Shown in pieces: positions 733 to 7,430 of a stretch of DNA of 38,313 nt. The first letter of the stretch is position 1, and each line of letters begins with the position of its first letter. The notes under the pieces were generated by a model. That model did no database searches. It saw nothing but the letters and a program-made list of their open reading frames with translations, and had not been told where the DNA came from. A program made the position numbers and the translations under genes. The stretch comes from Ignavibacteria bacterium (GTDB lineage Bacteria > Bacteroidota > Ignavibacteria > Kapaibacteriales > UBA4661): assembly GCA_013298375.1 (NCBI GenBank), contig JAAFHM010000003.1:1-38313 (forward strand), read 5' to 3'.

Positions 733-852
733 CGTCCGCACACAGCATAAATTCGAGGCGCAAACCAATATACAATCGTTGCAGTGGTTAAAAGAAAATG
801 ACCGTGCAGCATAAAAACACGCATTTTCGCGCCTCAGTTGTCAATAACGTTG

Positions 853-934
853 TGATAGAGGACAGAATCGAACTGTCTGAGTCAAAGACACGAGATTTAC
901 AGTCTCGCCGTGCGCCGTACACGAATACTCTACC
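853..934 (-). tRNA. tRNA-Tyr(GTA)
   Basis: GGTAGAG/CTCTATC acceptor, U8A9, D-stem CGTG/CACG, anticodon arm CGAGA-CTGTAAA-TCTCG, 13-nt variable arm, T-arm GACAG-TTCGATT-CTGTC; CCA not encoded. Confidence 0.85.
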
Positions 935-938
935 GTTG

Positions 939-1061
939 TGTAAGCGGGCAGAATCGAACTACCTGAGTCTCAAAAGCACCTCAATCGGTTAGAGGTCTGC
1001 GCAGTAGCCTAAAGACACCTAGCTTACGGCTAGGTCGTGCGCCGTACACGATTACGCTTAC
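939..1061 (-). tRNA. tRNA-Tyr(GTA)-like with about 41-nt insertion in the variable region
   Basis: GTAAGCG/CGCTTAC perfect acceptor, same D-arm as previous tRNA, anticodon arm CCTAG-CCGTAAG-CTAGG, T-arm GGTAG-TTCGATT-CTGCC; 54 nt between anticodon arm and T-arm versus 13 nt in its neighbour. Confidence 0.6.
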
Positions 1062-1235
1062 ATAATGCCCGTCTTTCCGGGCTGTCAGACTTTTGTAAGA
1101 GTCGGTCGTGTGTGTTGGGCAATTCTAGCGGACGCACATTTTGGTTTCAAAGAGAGGTGTACAAATCTCTCAGTTTGATGGATTCCTGCGTCTAAATCCA
1201 TCCCCACACCCGCGCTTAAACGAATGCCCTTTTGG

Positions 1236-1282
1236 GTTGTAGCGAGAGGCGTGCTCGAACCACCAACCTTCAGCTTATGAGA
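1236..1282 (-). repeat. Partial tRNA-Met 3'-half (direct repeat copy A)
   Basis: 43/47 identical to 1547-1593 (3' half of tRNA-Met); 5' half and D-arm absent. Confidence 0.75.
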
Positions 1283-1512
1283 TGCTCTTCTTCTCGACGG
1301 GTAACTATTTCCAAAACAAAATCGTAACTTTCAGATGCGGACTGCTCTTCATAACCTTCGTGCCAGAGAATATTGCGCTTGCTATGCCCATTCCGAATAG
1401 TCCAGCCTTCCCCCATGATGCCAATAAAGACAGCAGCTTCAGACGGATCATGGAATGATGCTCTGTATTGATTTTCGCTGTTAAAAACCTTGTAGTTTGG
1501 TGATGCTGCCAT
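1270..1512 (-). CDS. Hypothetical small protein (80 aa)
   Basis: ORF between the two tRNA 3'-half repeats; its stop codon lies inside the partial tRNA. Confidence 0.5.
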   Translation of the reverse strand: MAASPNYKVFNSENQYRASFHDPSEAAVFIGIMGEGWTIRNGHSKRNILWHEGYEEQSASESYDFVLEIVTRREEEHLIS

Positions 1513-1550
1513 TTCGATTCTCCAAAAAAGATTGATAAAAAGACTTGTTG

Positions 1551-1622
1551 TAGCGAGAGGCGTACCCGAACCACCAACCTTGAGTTTATGAGACTCACGA
1601 GCTGCCCTTGCTCTATCTCGCT
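1551..1622 (-). tRNA. tRNA-Met(CAT)
   Basis: AGCGAGA/TCTCGCT acceptor, TA, D-arm GAGC-AAGGGCA-GCTC, anticodon arm TGAGT-CTCATAA-ACTCA, T-arm GGTGG-TTCGGGT-ACGCC (one mismatch). Confidence 0.8.
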
Positions 1623-1683
1623 ATTTCGCCGGAGCGATGGTTATCCATCTATCTCTTCCAACAGTTATTGTAACTCCGGCTTG

Positions 1684-1758
1684 GCGCGGCGACGGGATTT
1701 GAACCCGCATCAGTTCCGGTTATGGAGCCGGATGCACTGCCAGTTGTGCTACGCCGCG
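1684..1758 (-). tRNA. tRNA with 8-nt anticodon loop CTCCATAA (Met- or Trp-derived)
   Basis: CGCGGCG/CGCCGCG acceptor, TA, D-arm GCAC-AACTGGCA-GTGC, anticodon arm TCCGG-CTCCATAA-CCGGA, T-arm GCGGG-TTCAAAT-CCCGT. Confidence 0.8.
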
Positions 1759-1829: not shown

Positions 1830-2108
1830 TCACTCATCTTCGTAACCCCAAACCCCTGCGGGGATGGGCTGCTCAAGTAATCGTTGTAATTTTTCCCGCA
1901 TAAACTGATACCGTGCCACATCACGGAGAAATTGCTGCTGCCGTAAGCACCAAATACGCGAACCCTGCCTTTCTCCATCCCGCAAACGAAGTAATATTGG
2001 TATCTCCATCTCAGCAAAACTAATCTGCTCGCGGAGTGAAACGATAGAACCTGCCGGAACGAGATGCTGTGGAACGGGGGATTGCGCGGAGTGTGCCACT
2101 GCGTTCAT
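1830..2108 (-). CDS. Hypothetical protein
   Basis: 92-aa ORF; start overlaps the stop of 2105..2314 (ATGA). Confidence 0.6.
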   Translation of the reverse strand: MNAVAHSAQSPVPQHLVPAGSIVSLREQISFAEMEIPILLRLRDGERQGSRIWCLRQQQFLRDVARYQFMREKLQRLLEQPIPAGVWGYEDE

Positions 2109-2314
2109 TGCGCTGTCCCTTCTGGCATGGTATTTGAGTCAGGTAAATCAGCATAGAACAGTCTTAATGCCTCTTCTACAACGTCGCACATATTCAACCC
2201 GTTGTCTGTGACAGTAGTGTTAATTCTTTCCCAAATCGACAAAGGCAGGGAAACAGAGCGCGTAAAACGGCGCTCCTTTGCTATTTTAGCTTTCACATGT
2301 CGTAAATCTTTCAT
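2105..2314 (-). CDS. Small ribbon-helix-helix-like protein
   Basis: MKDLRHVKAKIAKERRFTRSVSLPLSIWERINTTVTDNGLNMCDVVEEALRLFYADL: beta strand plus helices typical of RHH/CopG-like regulators. Confidence 0.55.
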   Translation of the reverse strand: MKDLRHVKAKIAKERRFTRSVSLPLSIWERINTTVTDNGLNMCDVVEEALRLFYADLPDSNTMPEGTAQ

Positions 2315-2403: not shown

Positions 2404-2700
2404 ATGCAAGAAAATAAATTCCATTCTTCAATATTTCTTGATAGGCTTCGCGAGAAGCTAGGTTTTAAGCGCGATACGCAGCTTGCGGATTTTTTAGGTA
2501 TTGCGCAGCCAACTATTTCCGGCTGGCGGACGCGGAACACGTTTGACTTTAGTCTTATCGCGGAGAAGTGTATCCCGCTTGGAATCAGCTTTGATGAACT
2601 TTTAGGCGTTACGACAAACCCCAAAGAGCGCACTGCGACAGATGCGGAAATTGCTGCGCTAGAATCGCTGCTCTCAAAACTTAAATCTCAATCGCTATAG
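2404..2700 (+). CDS. CI/XRE-type HTH transcriptional regulator
   Basis: FLDRLREKLGFKRDTQLADFLGIAQPTISGWRTRNTFDFSLIAEKCIPLGISFDELLG: HTH pattern; divergent from 2314. Confidence 0.75.
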   Translation: MQENKFHSSIFLDRLREKLGFKRDTQLADFLGIAQPTISGWRTRNTFDFSLIAEKCIPLGISFDELLGVTTNPKERTATDAEIAALESLLSKLKSQSL

Positions 2701-3180: not shown

Positions 3181-4293
3181 ATGACGAGTGAACAAGTCTC
3201 GCAAAAAATGGAAGCGAATTTGCACGGTCTCGTAACGCATATCCAAAAATCCGCCGCAAAGTGTAAAACCGAAGAAGCGGCAAAACACGCACTTGTGTTA
3301 CCGTTCCTGCAATTTGTCCTTAACTGGAATATCTTCGATCCTGAAGAAGTCATCCCCGAATACACTGCCGATTTTGGAATCAAGAAAGGTGAGAAAGTAG
3401 ATTATTGCGTTCAGAAAAACGGGCGCATTGCGTTTATTATTGAGTGCAAGATGCCGGGCGCGAAACTGGAAAAAGACCACGCCTCGCAGTTATATCGGTA
3501 TTTCAACACACTGACGGATTGCCGCATTGGAGTCCTGACCGATGGAGTGCGGTATCTGTTCTATACCGACAGCGAAAGTCCGAATGTTTTGGATGATACG
3601 CCTTTTCTCACTATTGACTTTTCACGAAAAGAAAGCATTATGATTGAAGATTTGAAGCACTTCACACGGGACTTGTTCAATGCAGACGATATACACAATA
3701 CAGCGACGCAAATCAAATACGCGGATAGTGTGAAAGCCTACCTTATTCGCCAACTGGATGCGCCGAATGATGAGTTTGTGCGCTTGCTTGTCAACGCCTC
3801 CGATAGTAGCGCCAAGTTCAACGCCAAGAACGCCGAAATAATGCGCTCTATTGTCAGGAAAGCGCTTGAAACGATGATACAAGACCGCGCATATCAAACT
3901 ATCAAGACCGCGCAAGTTGCAGAATCAGAAATCGGCAATGCCGCCGAAAGCAGCCCGAATACTAGTGCTGCAAAAGAAATCATTACCACCGTAGAAGAGT
4001 GGGAAGGGTTTTATACCGTGCGGACGCTGCTTCACGACGTGGTGCAGCCGGAACGGGTGCAGTTCAAAGATACGGTTTCGTACTTTAACGTTCTTTTAGA
4101 CGGCAATCCGCGCCAGCAAATCTGCCGCTTCTACTTCAATAATACTCGCAAATACCTCGGATTGTTCTCCGAAAAAGGCGAAACGAAAAAAGAGATTGGC
4201 GGTATTGCCGATTTGTACCTTTTAAAGCGTGAATTTGCCGCCGCCGTGAATATGTATGAACCTAAATCTTCCTATCCAAAAGTTTCCATTTGA
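3181..4293 (+). CDS. HsdR N-terminal-domain / type IV restriction-like nuclease
   Basis: EYTADFGIKKGEKVDYCVQKNGRIAFIIECKMPGAKLEKDHASQLYRYFN: PD-(D/E)XK arrangement of HSDR_N proteins. Confidence 0.75.
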   Translation: MTSEQVSQKMEANLHGLVTHIQKSAAKCKTEEAAKHALVLPFLQFVLNWNIFDPEEVIPEYTADFGIKKGEKVDYCVQKNGRIAFIIECKMPGAKLEKDHASQLYRYFNTLTDCRIGVLTDGVRYLFYTDSESPNVLDDTPFLTIDFSRKESIMIEDLKHFTRDLFNADDIHNTATQIKYADSVKAYLIRQLDAPNDEFVRLLVNASDSSAKFNAKNAEIMRSIVRKALETMIQDRAYQTIKTAQVAESEIGNAAESSPNTSAAKEIITTVEEWEGFYTVRTLLHDVVQPERVQFKDTVSYFNVLLDGNPRQQICRFYFNNTRKYLGLFSEKGETKKEIGGIADLYLLKREFAAAVNMYEPKSSYPKVSI

Positions 4294-4297
4294 AACC

Positions 4298-4708
4298 ATG
4301 AAAAAACTCCTTCTCCTTTCGCTCTTGCTCACAGGCTGTAATGTTTCCAATCCCAGCGGCACACAAAATAACGGACTTGATATTAAAAAATATCCGTTTC
4401 GGTTTACGGAAATTCTTCCCAACCCAAGCGGTGTGGATGTCGGAAACGAATACGCTATTATTCGGAACACGTCAAGTGACAGCGCTAGTATTCAAGATTG
4501 GTATTATACAGGTCGCTTAGTCACACGCTTTACATTCGGCTTTGCTGGGAAAGTTCCGGGCAGCTGGGAATCAAAATCCGGTACGGGTAGAACAAATGAA
4601 TGGCTTCACAACACCGCAGATACGCTGCGTCTTTATGCGCCAGACAACACGCTCGTTCAAACCGTGATTTGGGCAAACGTTGCCGATGGGCAAATCATTA
4701 AGCCATAA
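4298..4708 (+). CDS. Lipoprotein with lamin-tail-domain (LTD)-like fold
   Basis: MKKLLLLSLLLTGC lipobox; FTEILPNPSGVDVGNEYAIIRNTSSDSASIQDWYY resembles LTD; 4 bp after the preceding stop. Confidence 0.6.
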   Translation: MKKLLLLSLLLTGCNVSNPSGTQNNGLDIKKYPFRFTEILPNPSGVDVGNEYAIIRNTSSDSASIQDWYYTGRLVTRFTFGFAGKVPGSWESKSGTGRTNEWLHNTADTLRLYAPDNTLVQTVIWANVADGQIIKP

Positions 4709-4713
4709 TATTT

Positions 4714-5769
4714 ATGAGCAACATTGAAAAAGCACAAACCCGCTTGGAACGTTTGAAAGATAGCGTTTCGCGAGGTGTTGAATCTGCAAAAGACAAGGTT
4801 TCAGGCGTTGTGGAGGACAGCACGGTTGTTGAACGGGTGCGGGAATGGGTTGTTTCGCTGTTTGTAAAAGCCGTTGAATCCTGCTCCACCGAACGAGACC
4901 GCGCCGATCTGTTGGCGTGGCTTTCCGATGTTCGGTTTGACCTTGAACAAAACACCACCCCCGCCGATAGATTCCGTGCGGTTTCCGCCCGTATTGACGG
5001 TAAGAAAACCGCACAGGTACTAGGGCGAAGCGTTGGTGAAACATTCAACAGTTACAAAAACTCTTCGCTGCCATTGCCCGTAAAAATCGCTATTCCTGTA
5101 ACACTGGCGGCTTCTACGGTAATCGGCGGCGCGGGTGTGGGCATAGCAGGATTGGGAACGGCAATCGGCGCACCCGCACTGCTGCTGGTGTTTTTGGGCG
5201 CGGCGGGTATTACGTCGGTTATTGATGCGGTTCTGACAAACAAAAGCGCTGGCGAGTATGTTGCCTTCATCGGTGCGATGATTGCTCACGATGAAATGTT
5301 GCGCCGTACAAAAGCGGAACTGCGTAAGGCAATGGCAGCAAAGCCCGCCGCACCGCATAGATATGATGTTCCCGAAGAATATGCCGCGCTGCAACAGGCA
5401 TTGTTACAGCTTCAATCATACGAATTTGAGCAACACGTCATGTCGTTTTTTCAAAAAGAAGGATTAACGGCATGGGTAACAAAACAAAGCAACGATGCGG
5501 GTGTGGATGGTTTTGCACGACACCCCGAAGGCTTAATAGTTGTCCAGTGCAAACGAAATGCGTCGGGCAATCTCGTCGGTCGCCCGACGGTTCAGCAATT
5601 CAAAGGTGTCATTGAGGAAAATACGGCGTGGCGAGGCTACATCGTTACAACGAGTTCGTTCACCAACGAAGCAAGGGAAAGCGCGGCAAAAAATCCACGT
5701 CTTATTCTTGTCGATATGCCACTTTTGGCAAATTGGCACACATCTTTTTCTCTGCAAGCAAATGAATGA
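4714..5769 (+). CDS. Membrane-associated Mrr-like restriction endonuclease
   Basis: Gly/Ala-rich hydrophobic segment LPVKIAIPVTLAASTVIGGAGVGIAGLGTAIGAPALLLVFLGAAGITSVI followed by FEQHVMSFFQKEGLTAWVTKQSNDAGVDGFARHPEGLIVVQCKR (Mrr_cat-like PD-(D/E)XK). Confidence 0.75.
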   Translation: MSNIEKAQTRLERLKDSVSRGVESAKDKVSGVVEDSTVVERVREWVVSLFVKAVESCSTERDRADLLAWLSDVRFDLEQNTTPADRFRAVSARIDGKKTAQVLGRSVGETFNSYKNSSLPLPVKIAIPVTLAASTVIGGAGVGIAGLGTAIGAPALLLVFLGAAGITSVIDAVLTNKSAGEYVAFIGAMIAHDEMLRRTKAELRKAMAAKPAAPHRYDVPEEYAALQQALLQLQSYEFEQHVMSFFQKEGLTAWVTKQSNDAGVDGFARHPEGLIVVQCKRNASGNLVGRPTVQQFKGVIEENTAWRGYIVTTSSFTNEARESAAKNPRLILVDMPLLANWHTSFSLQANE

Positions 5770-6406
5770 AATTTTACAACGGCTGTCAACAATTATTGAT
5801 AAGCACTACGACGGTAGCCGCCCAGATTTTGCGCGGTCGCTTGGGAAAAGACCTGACAGTCTTCACGGCTACTTCCAAAAAGACAGCAAGCCCGGCAGCG
5901 ACCTGCTCGCCGAAATCCTCACTCTCGGCTTTAGCGCGGACTGGCTCCTCTCCGGCGAAGGCGCAATGTACGCTGACAACGAAGCCGGACGCGCCCTTGC
6001 GAACCGCAATGCTAGCGACGTTAAACAGCGCGTGGACGGGCGCTCACAAGAGGACATTCGTATCCGTGCGCAGCGCTGGCAAATGGCGCGTGAGTGGTTC
6101 ACGAAAACAGGAACAATAACGGAGTGGTACTGGCTGGCACGAAGCGTGGACGAGGCGGTAACGCTGGAATGGTTACTGTTTCAGGAAGGCGGTAAACAGC
6201 CGCACGAGCCGCCAACACTGAATAAATTTTGGCTATGGATTGCCGAAAGCGGCATCCGCCCCGAATGGATGCTCTTTTGCGACGAAGGCGAACCGTGGAT
6301 GGAAACGGTCGCAGGGCGGCGCTTTCAAGAGCGGCTGCGGCAACGGTTCACTCCTCAACGTGAAATCGTTCCCGTGAACGAAGCCCTGCCTGAATATTCT
6401 GCATAA
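5762..6406 (+). CDS. CI-repressor-like HTH protein with repeated WLL-x-EG motifs
   Basis: Start read at 5762 (ATGAATGA overlap with upstream stop); FARSLGKRPDSLHGYFQKDSKPGSDLLAEILTLGFSADWLLSGEGAMY, then TLEWLLFQEGGKQ and RPEWMLFCDEGEPW. Confidence 0.65.
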   Translation: MNEILQRLSTIIDKHYDGSRPDFARSLGKRPDSLHGYFQKDSKPGSDLLAEILTLGFSADWLLSGEGAMYADNEAGRALANRNASDVKQRVDGRSQEDIRIRAQRWQMAREWFTKTGTITEWYWLARSVDEAVTLEWLLFQEGGKQPHEPPTLNKFWLWIAESGIRPEWMLFCDEGEPWMETVAGRRFQERLRQRFTPQREIVPVNEALPEYSA

Positions 6407-6731
6407 TTACGAGTTCGTCCAAGCCGTTAATGAGGTCGCGGAGTTCCGTCGTTTTCTCCCGAATATCGGCGCTGATGGCTGTTGCATGGGCAAGCACTTC
6501 GATTGCATCAATATTCGCGTTCATGTCGTCGATGATGCCTTTGCTGTCTTGGATTGTCCGAATAATCGTCATAGACTGGTCGTTATAGAGCGCTTCGATA
6601 GCAGATATGCGCGTTTTGTGACGTTTTGCCGTGATGATTAAAACAGCGACTGTTCCCACGATAGTCAAGGCAATAAGCGCGATAAGAATTGTTGTAGGCG
6701 TGATAAGAACTGTTTCCATAGCGTTTTCCAA
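6348..6731 (-). CDS. Membrane-anchored coiled-coil protein
   Basis: N-terminal TM (IALIALTIVGTVAVLII) followed by a heptad-like helix; may start at 6719. Confidence 0.55.
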   Translation of the reverse strand: MENAMETVLITPTTILIALIALTIVGTVAVLIITAKRHKTRISAIEALYNDQSMTIIRTIQDSKGIIDDMNANIDAIEVLAHATAISADIREKTTELRDLINGLDELVIMQNIQAGLRSRERFHVEE

Positions 6732-7423
6732 GGTAAATATTCTAAAAAAGCAAGAAAGATGCAGGTATTTTTTATCAAATGTGAAGCGCTGTGCGCATAG
6801 CGTGTATCCGATTCAGGTAACAAAAGTTGATATGCAAAGATAAGCAGCCCTAAGAAATTATAGCAAAATAATCCGATAAAAATTTTCCCCGATGCCGATA
6901 GCCAGATCTGGCGGAAGGTTTCGCGGAAAAGGATAGCGACGGAATAATTATCACTCTCCCTGAGTTCTTTGGAAACATTCTGCATTTGCGAATTAAGCAC
7001 AAACGCAATGCACCAGTTCATCGTAATGTCGGACAAAATAATAAGCGGCTCGTCACCAAGCGCCATTGCGGGCTTAGAAGCGTGAAAGCCAAGCCACGCC
7101 GCGAAAAATGCTGGCATGAGAAGACTCATAGTGTTTCGCAAACGAGCGCTATTCGTCACTGACGAAACGAATTGCGCTTCAAGCAAGAACTCAATGACAG
7201 TGTAGAGGTGCTGAAGTGGTTGATAAGCGAAGCTCTGGTGTTGCTCTGTCAAGTATGCCGATCCCTCTTGGTACGCGAAATTACACGCTAGGTCCGTGAG
7301 TAGGCTGCACCAAACAAGCGTTACAATGGCTTTAACAGGTGCGGGAATTTTCTCCCCCACCTGCCAGCCGAGTAAGCAAACCAAAAAACTCAGTAATTCG
7401 ACAACAAAAAATCGTAGTGACAT
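6665..7423 (-). CDS. Polytopic integral membrane protein
   Basis: Several hydrophobic segments across 252 aa. Confidence 0.65.
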   Translation of the reverse strand: MSLRFFVVELLSFLVCLLGWQVGEKIPAPVKAIVTLVWCSLLTDLACNFAYQEGSAYLTEQHQSFAYQPLQHLYTVIEFLLEAQFVSSVTNSARLRNTMSLLMPAFFAAWLGFHASKPAMALGDEPLIILSDITMNWCIAFVLNSQMQNVSKELRESDNYSVAILFRETFRQIWLSASGKIFIGLFCYNFLGLLIFAYQLLLPESDTRYAHSASHLIKNTCIFLAFLEYLPWKTLWKQFLSRLQQFLSRLLP

Positions 7424-7430
7424 ATTTTAG

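What the first reader, a model, noticed from the sequence alone, without database searches (positions are those of the whole stretch)
3181..6406. Candidate undescribed defence/exclusion operon: HsdR_N nuclease, LTD lipoprotein, membrane Mrr nuclease, CI-like protein
Four plus-strand genes with gaps of 4 bp and 5 bp and an 8-bp overlap, so they are probably co-transcribed. Two are PD-(D/E)XK-type nucleases; one of these carries a hydrophobic membrane segment before its Mrr-like domain, and the lipoprotein would sit at the envelope. Known Mrr-type enzymes act on modified DNA in the cytoplasm. A membrane-tethered version paired with a lipoprotein suggests action on incoming DNA at the envelope. 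The phage also encodes its own methyltransferase, which could provide self-discrimination. I do not recognise this exact set as a named system.
Basis: partly seen in the sequence, partly recalled or inferred. Interest (0 to 1): 0.75.

Follow-up and report, generated by a model that had tools for sequence, protein, structure and literature searches.

The report
Prophage immunity-region cargo with two nucleases
Next to its lysogeny switch, a bacterial virus carries two well-conserved DNA-cutting enzymes, one of them probably held in the cell membrane, which most likely protect its host from rival viruses; the four neighbouring genes are a mosaic of separate cargo and not one new four-part defence machine.

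Summary
The genes are real and placed as described: A 3181-4293 (HsdR_N nuclease), B 4298-4708 (LTD lipoprotein), C 4714-5769 (Mrr nuclease with a hydrophobic segment), D 5762-6406 (CI-like). The single four-gene system fails the co-occurrence test. B and D homologues do not accompany A or C elsewhere. None of 21 C loci outside the host lineage has A, B or D nearby, and among 33 A loci only two related phages also carry C, 3-4 kb away. D belongs to the phage: in a second prophage of the same genome a full-length D homologue sits at the lysogeny switch, convergent with the same four neighbours, without A-B-C. A is a known stand-alone family (phrog_4225/COG4748) that repeatedly lies between repressor and integrase in temperate phages. 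C belongs to a conserved, apparently uncharacterised family: helical N-terminus, membrane hairpin, intact Mrr site. A and C are under strong purifying selection. Best reading: lysogeny-expressed accessory cargo of a phage-plasmid, with A and C as two independent restriction-type nucleases against incoming DNA and B an exchangeable lipoprotein. Defence is inferred, not shown. The phage methyltransferase is an unlikely partner: 29 kb away in the packaging module, absent from a relative that carries A.

The parts
3181..4293 (+). Gene A: stand-alone HsdR_N-type PD-(D/E)XK endonuclease, 370 aa (phrog_4225 / COG4748 type)
   Evidence: PF04313 3e-10, phrog_4225 8e-99; homologues at 28-92% identity; model pLDDT 83, best Foldseek PDB hit DrdV 9.6e-4, HsdR fragment 3h1t 0.05
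3400..3450 (+). Active-site stretch of A: D74, E88-x-K90 (invariant; Q103 follows)
   Evidence: alignments A2 and A3
4298..4708 (+). Gene B: lipoprotein with a lamin-tail-like (LTD) domain, 136 aa
   Evidence: lipobox LLTGC at residue 14; PF00932 1.9e-4, below cut-off; 22% identity, E 6e-7, to an LTD lipoprotein of another prophage in the same genome
4714..5769 (+). Gene C: Mrr-fold nuclease with N-terminal helical region and hydrophobic hairpin, 351 aa
   Evidence: PF04471 1.8e-27; phrog_19856 matches all 22 homologues; alignment A1; Mrr domain pLDDT >90, Foldseek to MspJI 4e-6 and AspBHI 2.7e-4
5068..5241 (+). Hydrophobic, glycine-rich segment of C (residues 119-176), predicted as two helices
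   Evidence: 19-residue hydropathy up to 2.26, and 2.1-2.4 in every one of 22 homologues; low model confidence
5404..5736 (+). Mrr catalytic domain of C (residues 231-341; D265, Q278-C-K280)
5762..6406 (+). Gene D: CI-type HTH protein, 214 aa; phage switch gene, not part of the cargo
   Evidence: phrog_4 1e-7; full-length homologue L114:8515-9234 with the same convergent neighbours
2404..2700 (+). Second small CI-type HTH gene, divergent from the gene at 2105-2314, at the switch position of the window
   Evidence: PF07022 2.2e-9
2105..2314 (-). Small gene of the lysogeny switch, likely ribbon-helix-helix
   Evidence: 55% identical to the gene divergent from D in L114; its relative in L006 matches RHH_1 7.6e-4
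6348..8431 (-). Four genes convergent with D (6348-6731, 6665-7423, 7431-8072, 8042-8431)
   Evidence: same order and orientation next to the D homologue in L114

Best explanation
The stretch is the accessory (cargo) part of the immunity region of a temperate tailed phage that also carries a plasmid-type replicon. A and C are two separate nucleases kept by the phage and probably made in the lysogen, where they cut DNA of competing phages or plasmids in the cytoplasm: A is a soluble HsdR_N-type endonuclease, C an Mrr-type endonuclease held by a membrane hairpin on the inner face of the inner membrane. B is an exchangeable surface lipoprotein that could add entry exclusion. D is the phage's own CI-type switch protein, next to which the cargo sits. 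Shown: anatomy, conservation, intact active sites, purifying selection, mosaic neighbourhoods, and the position of D in a sister prophage. Inferred: lysogenic expression, membrane topology, nuclease activity and the defence role.
For: Related phages (L006 = G006:C106; L028 = G122) have repressor -> A (70%) -> variable, mostly exported cargo -> C (79-80%) -> integrase. In 7 of 9 phages inspected, from several bacterial phyla, A lies on the repressor's strand between repressor and integrase. A second prophage contig of the same genome (L114) has D directly divergent from the 2105-gene homologue, without A, B or C. DNA identity with a chromosomal A in G003 runs from the A start codon to 13 bp into B and then stops, and a different lipoprotein follows there at the same 4-bp gap: A is constant, its partner swaps. 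Some A homologues lie beside OLD, PD-Lambda-1, Cas1-Cas2 or an Mrr-like gene. Prophage genes downstream of cI are expressed in lysogens (bstA, PMC7067206) and prophages are major carriers of defence genes (PMC9519451, PMC9122126). dN/dS 0.05-0.11.
Against: No phenotype for any A or C homologue was found in the papers searched. Most chromosomal A and C copies stand alone among housekeeping genes, and defence neighbours of A were not compared with a random control. The hairpin of C has low model confidence. The promoter scan was not above shuffled sequence, so co-transcription and lysogenic expression are unproven.
Confidence: 0.55

Rival explanations
1. One integrated system: A, B, C and D form a single defence or exclusion operon, with B sensing or blocking at the surface, C cutting at the membrane, A cutting in the cytoplasm and D regulating.
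For: Tight spacing and one strand; A and C share a region and order in related phages; an LTD lipoprotein recurs in a sister prophage.
Against: B and D do not travel with A or C: 21 C loci outside the lineage and 33 A loci. D is tied to other neighbours. B and the nuclease domain of C would lie on opposite sides of the inner membrane.
Confidence: 0.06
2. A and C act in the phage's own life, for example DNA processing, degradation of host or competing plasmid DNA, or replicon upkeep, and not in defence of the lysogen.
For: Phages carry many nucleases; this one has a plasmid replicon.
Against: Both families are common as chromosomal single genes far from phages, and the phage position is the lysogeny side, on the repressor's strand.
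Confidence: 0.2
3. B is the real exclusion factor, an injection-blocking lipoprotein like Ltp of TP-J34, and the nucleases are only fellow passengers.
For: Prophage lipoprotein Ltp interferes with DNA injection (described in PMC11514479); one defence system of PMC9519451 is a lipoprotein; different lipoproteins follow A in G003 and G006.
Against: B has no family match to a known exclusion protein and weak conservation, while A and C are the conserved genes.
Confidence: 0.12
4. A and C form a two-part unit (with any linker genes), because they recur together in four related genomes or phages.
For: A and C in window, G006, G122 and G001.
Against: All are from one lineage; C occurs without A in 21 other loci and A without C in 31 of 33; other genes intervene.
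Confidence: 0.1

Closest known systems
phrog_4225 / COG4748 stand-alone HsdR_N endonucleases of temperate phages
   Same: Full-length match, same size, same invariant residues, same slot between repressor and integrase. COG4748 (my assignment of A to this COG is from memory, not tested) is listed among restriction cargo of Tn7-like elements (PMC8649781) and in prophages (PMC12429752)
   Different: 28-42% identity to phage members in the annotated collection and G121; here followed by a lipoprotein and an Mrr nuclease
Type IV (Mrr / MspJI-type) restriction endonucleases
   Same: Mrr catalytic domain and D...QxK site; model matches MspJI and AspBHI
   Different: No Mrr N-terminal DNA-recognition domain found; a helical region and hydrophobic hairpin take its place
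BstA and other prophage defence genes carried beside the immunity repressor (PMC8585504, PMC7067206)
   Same: Position beside the lysogeny switch on the repressor's strand
   Different: No domain in common recognised; function here not shown
Ltp superinfection-exclusion lipoprotein of TP-J34 (PMC11514479)
   Same: Small prophage lipoprotein in the lysogeny cargo
   Different: LTD-like fold; no family match between them found

Membership tests
Type I restriction enzyme (HsdR) | HSDR_N PD-(D/E)XK nuclease domain | tested here: met
   PF04313 3e-10, D74/E88/K90 invariant
Type I restriction enzyme (HsdR) | SF2 helicase motor in the same protein | tested here: not met
   A is 370 aa and Pfam finds only HSDR_N
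Type I restriction enzyme (HsdR) | HsdM and HsdS genes alongside | tested here: not met
   None among the neighbouring ORFs read and scanned; the only methylase found is 29 kb away in the packaging module
phrog_4225 phage endonuclease | Full-length profile match | tested here: met
   8e-99, residues 9-359 to profile 3-354/357
phrog_4225 phage endonuclease | Nuclease activity | not testable with these tools
   needs protein assay
Type IV Mrr restriction enzyme | Mrr_cat domain with D...(E/Q)xK site | tested here: met
   PF04471 1.8e-27; D265, Q278-x-K280 invariant
Type IV Mrr restriction enzyme | Mrr N-terminal recognition domain | tested here: not met
   No Pfam match N-terminal to residue 231 that reaches its cut-off; helices and a hydrophobic hairpin predicted instead
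Type IV Mrr restriction enzyme | Cuts only modified DNA | not testable with these tools
   needs assay
PADLOC candidate PDC-S02 | Whole-protein match | tested here: not met
   Only residues 213-337, essentially the nuclease part, match
Superinfection-exclusion lipoprotein (Ltp type) | Lipoprotein signal in prophage lysogeny cargo | tested here: met
   MKKLLLLSLLLTGC
Superinfection-exclusion lipoprotein (Ltp type) | Sequence homology to a known exclusion lipoprotein | tested here: not met
   No match in Pfam above cut-off, PADLOC, PHROGs or NCBIfam
Classical CI repressor | HTH domain at the divergent switch | tested here: met
   phrog_4 1e-7 for D; the L114 homologue is divergent from the 2105-gene homologue
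Classical CI repressor | S24 peptidase domain | tested here: not met
   No Pfam hit in D; it is present as a separate ORF in L006
Conserved four-gene A-B-C-D system | Co-occurrence of all four homologues | tested here: not met
   Window only

The most novel reading that the evidence does not exclude
C founds an uncharacterised family of membrane-hairpin Mrr nucleases that patrol the inner face of the membrane and cut DNA as it enters; phages borrow it, together with A and changing surface lipoproteins, as a layered exclusion cassette.
Probability: 0.15. Interest if true: 0.7.

Novelty: new variant of a known kind. Interest (0 to 1): 0.42.

Why it matters
It would put a widely spread phage gene (phrog_4225, at the same lysogeny slot in phages of very different bacteria) and an uncharacterised membrane Mrr family on the list of testable prophage defence genes, and it shows that tight gene spacing in phage cargo is not proof of one machine.

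Tried and rejected
Single four-gene system: rejected by neighbourhood tests. Methyltransferase as partner: it belongs to the packaging module (63% homologue beside terS in G006) and is absent from nearly all of G121, which has A. Full type I R-M: no motor, no HsdM/HsdS. C in the annotated phage collection: no match; in plasmids only the nuclease domain matches. Profile search of PDB sequences with C and A: no relative (the three weak hits for A are chemotaxis receptors). Searches of viral contigs with terL and rep proteins found no relatives. Literature on 'HsdR N-terminal domain' with prophage and superinfection: none. Promoter and terminator scan: promoter hits not above chance, terminator-like hits (14 against 7.3) mostly inside genes. 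The secreted 318-aa protein before C in L006 and L028 resembles LTD by eye but no tool confirmed it.

Full report
The four ORFs lie where stated, with gaps of 4 and 5 bp and an 8-bp overlap. A (3181-4293) matches HSDR_N (3e-10) and, over its whole length, the phage family phrog_4225 'endonuclease' (8e-99). B (4298-4708) has a lipoprotein signal and a weak LTD match. C (4714-5769) has a strong Mrr catalytic domain (1.8e-27). D (5762-6406) matches phage repressors at its N-terminus only.

The window is one contig (C394) of the genome G000, 5.05 Mb in 677 contigs. Same-genus relatives correspond to records titled Ignavibacteria and Candidatus Kapaibacterium. Terminase, portal, capsid protein and tape measure lie on the minus strand at 15-38 kb. 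A Rep3 initiator, ParA and ParB lie at 9.8-12.4 kb, and a perfect array of 21-bp repeats lies just before rep. This looks like a phage-plasmid.

A is a widespread single gene. In 9 annotated phages inspected, 7 have it on the repressor's strand between repressor and integrase: EG-TP1, IPP25, Juicebox, TPELB_ph1, KpF5, FNU_1P and ANDSL2_ph1. P7.1 has only unnamed genes, and the Porphyromonas phage has it between portal and tail genes. It is also common in the host's order: 25 of 121 genomes, mostly as a solitary chromosomal gene. A few copies sit beside defence genes: OLD, PD-Lambda-1 and Cas1-Cas2, and an Mrr-like gene. No random control was run for this. D74, E88, K90 and Q103 are invariant.

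C is a conserved family. Its 22 aligned members share a helical N-terminus, a glycine-rich hydrophobic segment (invariant P120, P128, G143, G148, G152, G162) and an Mrr domain with invariant D265, Q278-C-K280 and Q295. Hydropathy peaks at 2.1-2.4 in every member. The model is confident for the nuclease (pLDDT >90) and poor for the hairpin. Foldseek finds MspJI and AspBHI, modification-dependent restriction enzymes, on the nuclease part. Outside the host lineage C stands alone, in Bradyrhizobium, Telmatospirillum, Methylococcaceae, Planctomycetota and others. A hairpin with no signal peptide would leave the nuclease in the cytoplasm; this is inference.

Co-occurrence was tested directly. In 21 C loci outside the host lineage there is no A, B or D. 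In 33 A loci C appears only in G006 and G122, and B in none; some loci are cut by contig ends. In those two related phages the order is repressor, A, other cargo including a NUC-type lipoprotein nuclease, then C. G001 has both genes on separate short contigs. So A and C mark a shared cargo region, and what lies between them changes.

The A-B junction shows the swapping. DNA identity of 85% between the window and G003 spans exactly the A gene plus about 13 bp of the next gene. There the partner is a different lipoprotein at the same 4-bp gap.

D belongs elsewhere. A second prophage contig of the same genome (C470, L114) has a full-length D homologue (32% over 225 aa). It is convergent with homologues of the window's 6348, 6665, 7431 and 8042 genes, with a 3' overlap of 89 bp against 59 bp in the window. 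There D is directly divergent from the 2105-gene homologue (55%), with no A, B or C. In the window these two positions are separated by a second HTH gene, a small minus-strand ORF and A-B-C. L114 carries another LTD lipoprotein (5.6e-7), an NYN nuclease and an integrase, so LTD lipoproteins recur as cargo in these phages.

Both nucleases are under purifying selection: dN/dS about 0.05 for A and 0.07-0.11 for C.

Function is inferred. Prophage genes next to cI are often expressed in lysogens, as bstA is (PMC7067206), and prophages are a main reservoir of defence genes in E. coli (PMC9519451). That survey found defence systems with putative DNases acting by direct immunity, a membrane-anchored DUF4041 protein with a DNA-cleavage domain, and a lipoprotein. 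The prophage lipoprotein Ltp interferes with DNA injection (PMC11514479). I therefore favour two independent restriction-type nucleases plus an exchangeable lipoprotein. I put this at 0.55 overall, the layout itself at about 0.9, and a single four-part machine at 0.06.

Noticed in passing
window 9703-12358: 5.8 perfect copies of a 21-bp repeat end 27 bp before a Rep3 initiator gene, followed by ParA and ParB: an iteron-type plasmid replicon in a tailed-phage genome, so probably a phage-plasmid.
   Followed up: partly
window 5762-6406 and L114:8515-9234: D looks like three degenerate repeats of a CI-type '...WLL..EG...' unit without a peptidase domain; a full-length relative exists in another prophage of the same genome.
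   Followed up: partly
window 9618-9657: Array of TTTTAAAAG repeats just upstream of the 21-bp repeats; possibly part of the replication origin.
   Followed up: no
window 852-1758: Up to three tRNA genes at the left end (Tyr, Met, and one with a four-base anticodon call); Rfam confirms two of them.
   Followed up: no
L006:5048-5857 and L028:5480-5920: A lipoprotein-type DNA/RNA non-specific endonuclease (PF01223, 5e-49 in L006) lies downstream of A in related phages; an exported nuclease as phage cargo is unusual.
   Followed up: partly
L114:1256-6412: Cargo of the sister prophage: SocA/Panacea-type gene, integrase, NYN nuclease and an LTD lipoprotein with a small upstream membrane protein.
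   Followed up: partly
G000:C658:1217-2302: A second A homologue in the same genome (42%) is broken by two stop codons.
   Followed up: no
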